DNA from: Romanomermis culicivorax
Lineage: Eukaryota > Nematoda > Enoplea > Mermithida > Mermithidae
Direction: 5' to 3'
Assembly: GCA_963922205.1 (NCBI GenBank)
Contig: CAWUHX010000032.1
Coordinates: 682,001 to 746,000, forward strand
Length of the DNA stretch: 64,000 nucleotides
Shown: positions 41,135 to 50,251 of the stretch, in pieces
Layout of the letters: each line of letters starts with the position of its first letter
Position numbering within the stretch: position 1 is the first letter of the stretch
Position numbers and translations under genes: made by a program
Notes under the pieces: model-generated
What the model was told of the DNA's origin: nothing
The model's database searches: none
The model's input: only the letters and a program-made list of their open reading frames with translations

Positions 41135-42160
41135 TTAGGGGTCGGGGACCTCTGCATCAAGATGTGGGTCAATCAGATTCGGTGTGAAGTCCCGGCTTAT
41201 TGAGGGATACAATAAGGGTGCCGAATCTGTTGCCTGTGAAGTGGGAGGTGTATCCTCTGCTTCACTCGGTTGTTCAGGGGACACGTAAAGTCGAAGCTGG
41301 TTGACATGTACAGTGTCTTCCTGATCCATCTCGAGACGAAGTGTGACATTGGGATATGCCACATTTGTTACAAGGTAGGGTCCATCGTAGATGGGCAGCA
41401 ATTTAGGAGTGAGTCCACGTTTGCTGGAGGTGCGCAGTTTGAGCACCCGATCCCCTACTTTGTACGAGACATCATGTGCCCTCCGGTCGTACGACCGTGC
41501 ATAGGCTTCCTGTGCTTTCTCAATCCGACTCTGGATTAAGGTTAACGCATTCGTGAAATGACGTTTGACCTCCATATCATATGAGGAAACATTAATGATA
41601 TGGGCCGGAGGGTTGAATGAGAGCGCGGCGTCAACAGGGAGCATGGGTGTGCGACCGTACATGAGTTCAAAGGGCGAGTACCCTGTTGACTCGTTCATGC
41701 TGATGTTGACGGCAAACACAGCGTATGGTAGGTGTTCATCCCAATCAGTATGTCCTTGATGAACATACATACGTAGCCGTGTGGCTAGCGTCTGATTAGC
41801 TCTTTCCACTTCGCCGTTGGTCATCGGGTGATAGGCGGTAGAGTGGATTTTCTTCGTTGCGCAGATCGCAGTGATTTCAGTCATCAGTTTTGATGTGAAA
41901 TCAGTGCCACGATCTGACTGAAGAATCTGCGGTGCCCCGTGCCGGCAGACAATTTGCGTTACAAACAGTCGGGCTATGGTGTTCGCAGTGATGTCCGGAG
42001 TAGCAAAAGCCTCGACCCATTTCGTAAAGTAGTCGATAAAAACTACGATGAAACGGTTGCCAGCTTCGCTAGTGGTCATTGGTCCCATGCAGTCGACACC
42101 TACCCGGTGAAACGGTCCCGTGATGGTGATAGGTTTCAGGGTCGCAGTGGTTTTCTGTCA
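41135..42160 (-). pseudogene. Integrase core and C-terminus of copy 2, downstream of an internal TGA
   Basis: Same reading frame as the long envelope-pol frame and separated from it only by the TGA at 42158-42160; copy 1 has an Arg codon there. The core shows the catalytic triad: Asp in VDCMG, Asp in SDRGTDF, Glu in EVERANQT. It is followed by a GPY/F module (YDGPYLV...VHVNQLR) typical of Ty3/gypsy integrases, and a ~50-residue acidic tail. It would integrate element cDNA in the nucleus. As it stands this copy could make integrase only by stop-codon readthrough or from another source. Confidence 0.9.
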
Positions 42161-48503: not shown

Positions 48504-50251
48504 GGATCACCTGAAGAAGAAGGTAGTATACCTGACAAATTCATGGGCTCGACCTGGTCGAGGACTTCCGTAGCCGAATCCGTGGGGATCGAAGGCGGTG
48601 GTCCTGGAGGGACGGTGCGGGCCGGTGGCGCCGAAGACGTCGTATTTGCGGCTGGAGTTGGCTCGGCAGTCTTGAGTTTAGGTATGCGATACGATGCGAG
48701 GATGTTAGCGTGGCCAACAAACTGCGGTGTCGTCGAGGGGTCCAGAGTGACCGGCATCGCATACTTTGGTGGTGGTGGTGGCAGTGGTATGTCCGATACG
48801 TTCATCGGTACGGGTACCTGGGCTGCTTGGACCACTGAAAATCCAATACTGATTACGCAGACAGGATAACACTGTTGTGAAGAATCTGTCAGGTGTTCAG
48901 CAAGTGCCTCATCATCCAGGTCAAGAGGATCTGGATGAGGAGGGCCATCGGTAGCCCCAACGGCGTTGTTGCGGCGTATGGGCTGCCGATAATGGTTTCC
49001 TGTCCCGTTGGGAGGGTGATAACCATTTCTTTGATGATACACATTTGTCCCCTGGGAAGAATAACCAGTATCTTGGTAGACATTCTCACCCGTGTTTGCC
49101 GGATTGCGCTGCGGACAGGCAGTTGATCGGTGCACTCGCACTTGACGACAATGAGGGCATGGCCTATCACATCGGTCCGTGGGGTGGGCACGTGTACGGC
49201 AAAAATAACAGCGACCACCGTTAGCGGCGTTGTTACCGGGGGTGGCACCGGTGGGACGCTGGGCCCGGCAGTCGGCGTCGCTATGTGTACACAGTCCGTG
49301 GAAGGAGCACGTTTGAAGGTGTGCTCCCGACGAGCGTCGCCCGGCGGACTGATTTGGTGTCGACGGCTGTGGAGGCGGCGTCTGTTGGATTGGCGCGGGT
49401 GCACGTTGCTGGGCCGTGAGCTTCACTACGTGGGCCGTGAGCCTGGCCATTTCCTGTTTCAAGCGGCGAACCTCATCGGCGGAGGATGACGACGTTGGAG
49501 CGTTGCTCTGACGACCGTTTGCGCTTCTGTTAGGCATATCGGGATTATATCCGGCGTGTTTAGGTTCTGAAGAGAAAACGGCATTAGATGGAGCAGTGTA
49601 CCGGATCTCGTCCCGAAAGATTTGGGATTCTGCGTAACAGGCTGCCTTGAGTGTCTCTTCAAGAGTCGTGAACTCCCTAAACTTGATACTATCTCGGAGG
49701 ACCGGCTTCAGTCCCCGCAGAAAGATAGGTTTGATGATAGAATCTCGGACATCCGTCGCGAGATCTGGATACGCTACCCTGGATAGTCTCTTGAGGTGCT
49801 CAAGGTAGACTATCGCGGACTCTGTCGGCTTCTGCAGTCGATCTTGGATCAGCTGCTGATGCAGATCAGAGTCGCGCCCTACCGGAAAATCTCTCCGTAG
49901 AAAAGCCGTAAACTCTTCGTAGCGGGTAGGTATTGGAGTGCTGCTGCTGAAGTCCCGGTAGGAGGCGAGAGCAGGACCCGTAAGGCATGACTCCAGAAAG
50001 GCGATTTTATACGCATGATCCGTTTCGCTTACACCCTGGAGTGTAAAGAAACGAGTAAGATGCGACATAAAATCGGTGATAGACTCACCAAAAGCACCGG
50101 AGAAGGTGGGAGGGGCCATAAAGCTGGACACGGGAGGGTGCCTCCGACCATTCATGGCCTCTAACTTTTGGTTGAGGGGTCCAAGAGCATTCTCAAATGC
50201 TGCCTGGACCTTGTTCTCGATCTGTGAAGGGAGATCAGTTTCCGACTTCAT
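48422..50251 (-). CDS. Gag polyprotein of copy 2
   Basis: 609 residues from ATG at 50249-50251. The N-terminal half has the retrotransposon capsid pattern (around FLESCLTGPALASYRDF and YLEHLKRLSRVAYPDL), which packs into virus-like particles. Residues 348-361 form a canonical CCHC zinc knuckle (CYFCRTRAHPTDRC), followed by a second, atypical one (CPHCRQVRVHRSTAC, spacing 2-5-4); these bind genomic RNA. Between capsid and knuckles is a Pro/Gln/Ser-rich linker with a short predicted coiled stretch (EVRRLKQEMARLTAHVVKL). The C-terminal third is Pro-rich with a PPPPP run. No stop interrupts it. Copy 1 has lost this gene. Confidence 0.9.
   Translation of the reverse strand: MKSETDLPSQIENKVQAAFENALGPLNQKLEAMNGRRHPPVSSFMAPPTFSGAFGESITDFMSHLTRFFTLQGVSETDHAYKIAFLESCLTGPALASYRDFSSSTPIPTRYEEFTAFLRRDFPVGRDSDLHQQLIQDRLQKPTESAIVYLEHLKRLSRVAYPDLATDVRDSIIKPIFLRGLKPVLRDSIKFREFTTLEETLKAACYAESQIFRDEIRYTAPSNAVFSSEPKHAGYNPDMPNRSANGRQSNAPTSSSSADEVRRLKQEMARLTAHVVKLTAQQRAPAPIQQTPPPQPSTPNQSAGRRSSGAHLQTCSFHGLCTHSDADCRAQRPTGATPGNNAANGGRCYFCRTRAHPTDRCDRPCPHCRQVRVHRSTACPQRNPANTGENVYQDTGYSSQGTNVYHQRNGYHPPNGTGNHYRQPIRRNNAVGATDGPPHPDPLDLDDEALAEHLTDSSQQCYPVCVISIGFSVVQAAQVPVPMNVSDIPLPPPPPKYAMPVTLDPSTTPQFVGHANILASYRIPKLKTAEPTPAANTTSSAPPARTVPPGPPPSIPTDSATEVLDQVEPMNLSGILPSSSGDPRVGTRNLSQSTTLLISCSQRHRPSKT

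What the first reader, a model, noticed from the sequence alone, without database searches (positions are those of the whole stretch)
41135..50251. Retroelement with its envelope gene between gag and pol, fused in frame to pol
The long minus-strand frame starts, after a basic leader, with a signal-like segment, a Cys-rich ectodomain with about nine N-glycosylation sites and a transmembrane helix. It continues without a stop into protease, reverse transcriptase, RNase H and integrase. Retroviruses and errantiviruses place env 3' of pol and express it separately; I know of no described family with gag-env-pol order or an Env-Pol fusion. The topology works: ectodomain in the lumen, enzymes in the cytosol. 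This would anchor pol to membranes and could couple enzyme packaging to envelope incorporation.
Basis: partly seen in the sequence, partly recalled or inferred. Interest (0 to 1): 0.92.

Follow-up and report, generated by a model that had tools for sequence, protein, structure and literature searches.

The report
Retroelement with built-in envelope: Gag-Env-Pol
A young, multi-copy virus-like element in what is probably an invertebrate genome encodes its shell, its envelope protein and its copying enzymes as one continuous reading frame in the unusual order shell-envelope-enzymes, and an 86-base removable segment probably decides whether only the shell or the whole chain is made.

Summary
The window copy is a broken member of a young LTR element family: of 86 scored copies in the same genome (98-100% identical over 500 residues), 56 have one unbroken frame of at least 3084 codons, Gag-Env-protease-RT-RNase H-integrase. 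Env is a Monjiviricetes-type fusion glycoprotein (PF24664). Env, the transmembrane-to-protease linker and Pol are under purifying selection between two families. Database relatives include a 2294-aa single-ORF Gag-Env-Pol protein. The '1912-codon protein with basic leader' is partly an artefact of stops in this copy.

New here is an 86-nt GT-AG segment in gag, with conserved sites in both families and exactly absent from 3 of 86 copies, one with LTR ends and a 4-bp target duplication. Removing it moves Gag into a selected second frame that ends just before Env. I infer that unspliced RNA makes Gag-Env-Pol and spliced RNA makes Gag alone, as in barley BARE1. No RNA evidence was available.

The parts
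48422..50251 (-). Gag ORF of this copy: Ty3-type capsid (about 50083-49637) and two zinc knuckles (about 49210-49115); in intact copies the frame runs on into Env-Pol
   Evidence: PF19259 E 1.5e-7; CCHC motifs; gag pieces 26-28% identical to P0011 and P0009
48446..48531 (-). 86-nt GT-AG intron inferred in gag; its removal switches Gag from frame 1 to frame 2
   Evidence: exactly absent in 3 of 86 copies, donor identical and AG kept in the other 83; GT and AG sites and the 86-nt length kept in 3 of 3 B-family copies
47733..48445 (-). dual-coded segment: frame 2 is the inferred tail of spliced Gag and ends in TGA just before Env; frame 1 is the inferred read-through into Env in unspliced RNA
   Evidence: 34 of 50 shared polymorphisms at frame-2 third positions, TGA in 86 of 86; A/B dN/dS 0.18-0.29 in frame 2 against 0.86-1.02 in frame 1; synonymous-shuffle test 0.015 and 0.00025 for an open frame 1, two copies tested
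47606..47680 (-). internal signal-peptide-like hydrophobic segment
   Evidence: hydropathy; same position in P0009 and P0011
46061..47605 (-). Env ectodomain, Monjiviricetes (chuvirus/bornavirus-like) fusion glycoprotein
   Evidence: PF24664 E 3.5e-14 and 2.2e-14; 34-39% identical to four database proteins
45965..46060 (-). Env transmembrane helix and start of cytosolic linker
   Evidence: hydropathy; A/B dN/dS 0.22 and 0.21
45452..45826 (-). first aspartic-protease-like domain (DTG); P0008 and P0011 have only about 55-90 residues between TM and their single protease, too few for it
   Evidence: motif, weak PF13975 (E 0.08); A/B dN/dS 0.09
44537..44821 (-). second aspartic protease domain
   Evidence: PF13975 E 2.6e-7; A/B dN/dS 0.11
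43262..43843 (-). reverse transcriptase
   Evidence: PF00078 E 4e-31
42785..43174 (-). RNase H
   Evidence: PF17919, PF17917
42158..42340 (-). integrase zinc domain, frame interrupted by a stop in this copy
   Evidence: PF17921 E 2e-22; copy B has no stop at this junction
41135..42088 (-). integrase core and C-terminal part, same frame as Env-Pol
   Evidence: PF00665 E 1e-8; frame
39135..40614 (-). 3' LTR (1480 nt, TG...CA)
   Evidence: LTR termini learned from other copies found; similarity to copy B LTRs
50252..53876 (-). long 5' leader with a block of imperfect ~65-nt repeats (52172-52733); 5' LTR lost in or beyond the assembly gap 53877-53976
   Evidence: leader match 53488-53598 to copy B 13316-13428
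4626..15183 (-). copy B, an older relative: LTRs 4626-6010 and 13806-15183 (91.8% identical), carries Env stem-TM-protease-Pol in the same order with stops and indels; no match to Gag or to the Env N-terminus

Best explanation
A Ty3/Gypsy-like LTR element whose unspliced RNA is translated as one Gag-Env-Pol polyprotein: Gag in the cytosol, an internal signal segment that threads the Env ectodomain into the ER lumen, a transmembrane helix, then protease, RT, RNase H and integrase back in the cytosol. Host signal peptidase would cut on the lumenal side and the element's protease on the cytosolic side, so enzymes start life anchored beside Env (inferred). Removal of an 86-nt intron in gag shifts the frame so that Gag gains a frame-2 tail and stops just before the Env signal segment. 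Spliced RNA thus gives Gag alone and unspliced RNA gives Gag-Env-Pol, setting the ratio without ribosomal frameshifting. Shown at DNA level: domain order, single unbroken frame in 56 of 86 scored copies, selection on Env, linker, Pol and the frame-2 tail, conserved splice sites, intron-less copies. Inferred: the RNAs, protein processing, topology and any infectivity.
For: 56 of 86 scored copies with an unbroken frame of at least 3084 codons. Gap-free 213-residue match over TM-protease in copy B. dN/dS Env stem+TM 0.22, linker 0.21, PR1 0.09, PR2 0.11, RT 0.06; the two other frames 0.9-5.9. P0011: one 2294-aa ORF Gag-Env-PR-RT-RH-IN; P0009: Gag-Env in one ORF; P0008: Env-PR-RT-RH in one ORF. 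Recent mobility: LTR pairs 97-100% identical over >1.4 kb in 7 of 10 copies examined, 4-bp TSD in 5 of 7 readable. Intron: (intron-less copy C78 has LTR ends and TSD GTAG). Dual coding.
Against: No RNA or protein data. In 0 of 3 B-family junctions is one unspliced frame intact from Gag to Env; these copies are decayed, so read-through is shown only in family A. P0008 lacks Gag in its ORF and P0009's ORF ends after the Env tail, so the expression scheme may vary. A splice-acceptor-like sequence just after the frame-2 stop would also allow a separate spliced Env-Pol message. The predicted Env model was poor (pLDDT 42), so the fold is not confirmed. Shared polymorphisms in the last part of Gag show little third-position bias.
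Confidence: 0.68

Rival explanations
1. Env-Pol is made only from a separate spliced message that uses an acceptor just before the Env signal segment; the open frame from Gag into Env is incidental and Gag always ends at the frame-2 stop.
For: Acceptor-like sequence right after the frame-2 TGA; errantivirus-type env splicing is known (recalled); the 3 B-family copies examined do not keep the read-through frame.
Against: Frame 1 is free of stops in 81 of 86 copies over the junction (aligned positions, indels ignored), expected in only 1.5% or 0.025% of synonymous re-draws of the frame-2 sequence of two copies; P0011 and P0009 join Gag and Env directly.
Confidence: 0.2
2. The 86-nt absence in three copies is a chance deletion, not splicing, and Gag reaches frame 2 by -1 ribosomal frameshifting.
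For: Frame 1 to frame 2 is a -1 change (my reading); the three copies could share ancestry in part (10 to 31 differing columns).
Against: Absence is exactly GT to AG; donor identical and AG kept in 83 of 83 others; GT, AG and the 86-nt length kept in 3 of 3 copies of a family 63-80% identical over the junction pieces; joining is in phase.
Confidence: 0.08
3. Env is a passive passenger: captured but without function in the element's life cycle.
For: No functional data; copy B has no match to the Env N-terminus.
Against: dN/dS 0.20-0.26 for the Env N-terminal part and 0.22 for stem plus TM between families; 30 of 35 variable Env sites among 8 loci at third positions.
Confidence: 0.06
4. Assembly artefact or nested insertion that put an env next to pol.
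For: The window has an adapter-flanked gap nearby.
Against: 86 scored copies spread over many contigs, a second family, and three outside proteins with all or part of the order.
Confidence: 0.01

Closest known systems
Burro (giant Gypsy-like LTR retrotransposons of planarians; PMC6431247, section 7 read)
   Same: env in frame between gag and pol, with hits to mononegavirus fusion glycoproteins
   Different: Burro exceeds 30 kb with a 4873-aa ORF1 carrying ankyrin, MATH-TRAF, BIR/BCL2 and dUTPase-like motifs; here a 3092-codon frame with none of these in the scanned pieces apart from a chance-level BH4 hit, two protease-like domains, and an inferred frame-switching intron that the Burro section does not mention. 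Sequence kinship could not be tested.
BARE1 of barley (Copia; PMC3735527, passages)
   Same: a short intron (104 nt there, 86 nt here) after gag whose removal shifts the frame so that only Gag is made
   Different: Copia type; DNA copies of the spliced BARE RNA could not be amplified from barley, whereas here 3 of 86 copies lack the intron; there the stop comes three residues after Gag, here the frame-2 tail is about 236 codons and selected
Anakin (Pao plus chuvirus glycoprotein in mosquitoes; PMC7642597, passages)
   Same: Env from the chuvirus-like fusion glycoprotein group
   Different: BEL-Pao polymerase; the passages seen do not give the position of the glycoprotein relative to gag and pol
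Errantiviruses and retroviruses
   Same: Gag, Pol and Env in one LTR element
   Different: env lies 3' of pol and is expressed separately (recalled; PMC5408684 passages, say an ORF3 downstream of pol is usually assumed to be env)
Flavivirus polyprotein (recalled, analogy only)
   Same: capsid, internal signal, glycoprotein, then enzymes in one membrane-threaded chain
   Different: unrelated RNA virus; no reverse transcription

Membership tests
Ty3/Gypsy (Metaviridae-like) LTR elements | pol order PR-RT-RH-IN with H2C2 integrase | tested here: met
Ty3/Gypsy (Metaviridae-like) LTR elements | Ty3-type capsid | tested here: met
   PF19259 E 1.5e-7, 31.4 bits against 29.1
Ty3/Gypsy (Metaviridae-like) LTR elements | LTRs TG...CA, 4-6 bp target duplication, PBS at the LTR | tested here: met
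   TG...CA, 4-bp TSD in 5 of 7 readable of 10 copies, TGG... directly after the 5' LTR
Ty3/Gypsy (Metaviridae-like) LTR elements | RT phylogeny inside the group | not tested
   no reference RT set on hand
Burro | env in frame between gag and pol | tested here: met
Burro | giant size with ankyrin, BCL2, MATH-TRAF, dUTPase motifs | tested here: not met
   no such Pfam hit except a chance-level BH4 (E 0.05) in piece P0007; 3092-codon frame
Burro | sequence kinship of Env and Pol | not testable with these tools
   no Burro sequence on hand
Retroviruses / errantiviruses | env 3' of pol, separate message | tested here: not met
   position only: env is upstream of protease and the frame ends after integrase; messages could not be tested
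Anakin (BEL-Pao plus chuvirus Env) | BEL-Pao pol | tested here: not met
   Pfam hits are RVT_1, RT_RNaseH(_2), Integrase_H2C2, rve; no BEL-Pao model hit (BEL-Pao model names recalled)
Monjiviricetes fusion glycoprotein (PF24664) | profile match above curated cut-off | tested here: met
   52.1 bits against 27; also in P0009, P0010, P0008, P0011
Monjiviricetes fusion glycoprotein (PF24664) | class III fusogen fold (class recalled) | tested here: inconclusive
   AlphaFold model pLDDT 42; gB profile matches below cut-off in P0010, 1.3e-4, and P0011, 0.0065
Troyka | CG...CG termini, 3-bp TSD, no env | tested here: not met
   features from PMC12440569
BARE1-type splice-made Gag | short intron whose removal ends the frame after Gag | tested here: met
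   DNA level only
BARE1-type splice-made Gag | both RNAs present and translated | not testable with these tools
   no RNA data

The most novel reading that the evidence does not exclude
A compact, recently mobile lineage of retrovirus-like elements, with relatives in other samples, is built like a flavivirus: one membrane-threaded Gag-Env-Pol polyprotein in which Env anchors the enzymes to the budding membrane. An 86-nt intron that flips Gag into a second, selected frame sets the Gag to Gag-Env-Pol ratio, a control that I did not find described for an env-bearing retroelement in ten library searches.
Probability: 0.5. Interest if true: 0.85.

Novelty: new variant of a known kind. Interest (0 to 1): 0.74.

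Why it matters
Env 3' of pol, made separately, is taken as the rule for retroviruses. A young family with many unbroken copies in which Env sits inside the Gag-Pol chain makes three questions testable by reading existing material: how Env and enzymes can be co-packaged, how such a chain is processed, and how Gag excess is set without frameshifting. It suggests that the Burro arrangement is not a planarian oddity, and that a BARE-type splice switch exists in an env-bearing element. The intron-less copies are a DNA-level record that spliced RNA can enter reverse transcription.

Tried and rejected
Structure: AlphaFold of the Env piece with a 4-sequence alignment gave pLDDT 42; not used for fold searches. 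Viral contigs and prokaryote genomes gave no relatives with the patterns used. The PDB sequence search gave only chance-level hits, best E 0.02. Troyka was considered and rejected (no env, other termini). A free-standing Env-Pol ORF starting at 47896 was rejected. Host: the assembly has a COX1 stretch that reads without stops when TGA is Trp and AGA/AGG are sense (tables 4, 5, 9, 13, 14) and has 19 stops by the vertebrate code, possibly a nuclear copy; species not identified.
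Full report
Observation. The minus strand of 39.1-53.9 kb holds an LTR element. This copy has Gag (50251-48422), a 1912-codon frame (47896-42158) and an integrase core (42088-41135). The long frame codes for a signal-like hydrophobic segment, a Cys-rich ectodomain, a transmembrane helix, two aspartic-protease-like domains, RT, RNase H and the integrase zinc domain. The ectodomain matches Pfam PF24664, the fusion glycoprotein of Monjiviricetes, at E 3.5e-14 (52.1 bits against a cut-off of 27; 2.2e-14) and the bornavirus G model below its cut-off. 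So Env is a true viral-type glycoprotein. Gag matches the Ty3 capsid model.

Other copies in this genome. The window is part of contig C32 of a 359-Mb assembly with 595 contigs. A search with the first 500 residues of the long frame scored 86 of 3863 first-look candidates; all 86 match at 98-100% identity. The open frame through the match is at least 3084 codons in 57 of 86, exactly 3092 in 44, 2000-3083 in 18 and below 2000 in 11 (tallied). One of the 57 has a stop inside the match, which leaves 56 unbroken. Frame positions in the window show that 3092 codons is the distance from the stop before Gag to the stop after integrase. Intact copies therefore exist, in which Gag, Env and Pol form one frame; the window copy is one of the broken ones, with stops in the Gag tail and in integrase. 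The counts are lower bounds and favour the most similar copies.

Age and mobility. In 10 copies whose flanks I fetched, 7 gave LTR pairs aligned over more than 1.4 kb at 97.2-100% identity; C4 and C63 gave shorter high-identity pieces and C480 none. Termini are TGTCACGTG...ATATGTGACA, with TGGCGAGGCTGG directly after the 5' LTR. A 4-bp target duplication is seen in 5 of 7 copies with both ends readable (C102, C130, C134, C336, C16); C251 and C278 have none, and C4, C63 and C480 could not be read. The family has moved recently.

Selection. Copy B in the same window (LTRs 91.8% identical) belongs to an older family: besides copy B itself, 39 scored matches (of 984 candidates) are 87-91% identical to it over 637 nt. 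Between A and B, dN/dS is 0.22 for Env stem plus TM, 0.21 for the cytosolic linker, 0.09 for the first protease, 0.11 for the second, 0.06 for RT, 0.09 for RNase H and 0.16 for the integrase core; the two other frames give 0.9-5.9 (codons with stops left out). The frame crosses TM, linker and first protease as a gap-free 213-residue match at 75% identity, apart from point stops in decayed B. So the Env-protease fusion was inherited and kept.

Relatives elsewhere. Three searches of about 5.8 billion proteins gave four relatives. P0011 (2294 aa, lgn/ena, 9530-base contig) is one ORF with Gag, an internal hydrophobic segment, Env, TM, protease, RT, RNase H and integrase. P0009 (1186 aa, ena) is Gag-Env in one ORF. 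P0008 (1424 aa, jgi) is Env-protease-RT-RNase H. P0010 (536 aa) is Env only. Env identities to the window copy are 34-39%, Pol 49% (P0008) and 34% (P0011), Gag 26-28%. Env and Pol agree on the nearest relative (P0008), as expected if they travel together. Candidate lists were capped at about 8000 per search, so absence of others means little.

The frame switch. Codon statistics show coding in frame 1 up to about 48550, in frame 2 from about 48500 to a TGA at 47735, then in frame 1 for Env, with a weak signal at the changeover. Between the frames lies an 86-nt segment, 48531-48446, with donor TCAG/GTATACT and acceptor TTCACAG/. Of 86 junctions fetched, 3 lack exactly this segment, while 83 of 83 others keep an identical donor and the acceptor AG. 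The three differ from each other at 10-31 aligned columns. One of them (C78) has LTR ends and a 4-bp duplication GTAG, as expected of a reverse-transcribed spliced RNA; for C251:98436 only the 5' end was found, and the ends of C360 were not examined. In 3 of 3 B-family junctions the GT and AG sites and the 86-nt length are kept. Removing the segment joins Gag to frame 2 in phase.

Two frames at work. In 48445-47736, of 50 polymorphisms shared by at least two copies, 34 lie at frame-2 third positions and 6 at frame-1 third positions; frame 2 ends in TGA in 86 of 86 and is stop-free in 84 of 86. Against the B family, dN/dS is 0.18-0.29 in frame 2 and 0.86-1.02 in frame 1, while the Env part downstream is 0.20-0.26 in frame 1. 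Yet frame 1 is stop-free over the junction in 81 of 86 copies (by aligned position, indels ignored). Re-drawing the frame-2 codons of two copies synonymously 20,000 times gives a stop-free frame 1 in 1.5% (codon usage kept) or 0.025% (element usage) of draws; the third frame, which has 5-6 real stops, was never stop-free. So frame 2 is the selected protein and frame 1 seems kept open for read-through into Env. Against this, none of the 3 B-family junctions keeps an unbroken unspliced frame from Gag to Env; they are decayed, so the point is open. The shared polymorphisms in the last part of Gag (48770-48536) show little third-position bias (6, 4 and 8 by codon position).

Mechanism. I read this as: unspliced RNA gives Gag-Env-Pol, spliced RNA gives Gag. 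Gag-Env-Pol would thread the membrane, with Env outside and enzymes inside. Host signal peptidase and the element protease would cut it. Shown: anatomy, selection, splice-site conservation and intron-less copies. Inferred: RNAs, translation, topology, cleavage, infectivity. The two tandem protease-like domains are unexplained; P0008 and P0011 have one protease each.

Literature. PMC6431247 (section 7 and passages) describes Burro with env in frame between gag and pol as the first such case. PMC3735527 (passages) describes BARE1, where splicing out 104 nt makes a Gag-only RNA. Passages or sections were also seen of PMC7642597, PMC5408684, PMC12440569 (outline, part 1 of 5, section 12, passages), PMC9040795, PMC8556966 and PMC6238403. 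In the parts I saw, none describes a compact gag-env-pol element or a splice switch between Gag and Gag-Env-Pol. The library lacks most subscription papers, so this is not proof of absence.

Verdict. New variant of a known kind.

Noticed in passing
45826-44537: Two tandem aspartic-protease-like domains between Env TM and RT; the first is under strong purifying selection (dN/dS 0.09), while P0008 and P0011 have one protease each.
   Followed up: partly
53852-54001: A 100-N gap flanked on both sides, in inverted order, by AGCAGTGGTATCAACGCAGAGTACT, which I recall as a SMART cDNA/amplification adapter; a library artefact left in the assembly.
   Followed up: partly
54267-56093: Long minus-strand ORF that looks like a hAT-type transposase (recalled resemblance, not scanned).
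   Followed up: no
52172-52733: Block of imperfect ~65-nt repeats with TTGCAGACGTCAGA/TTGCTGACGTCA cores in the element's 5' leader.
   Followed up: no
28818-30179: Diverged repeat array in a stretch with strong A/T skew.
   Followed up: no
4584-4660: Near-perfect fold-back palindrome across the outer end of copy B's 3' LTR; target duplication of copy B not assessed.
   Followed up: no
L126 (G000:C117:992573-993922): COX1 stretch that needs TGA=Trp and AGA/AGG as sense codons, inside a 1.03-Mb contig: mitochondrial DNA or a nuclear copy of it; suggests an invertebrate host.
   Followed up: partly
window 47737-47721: Splice-acceptor-like CTGACACTGCCCCTCAG at and after the frame-2 stop, just before the Env signal segment; possible separate Env-Pol message.
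   Followed up: no
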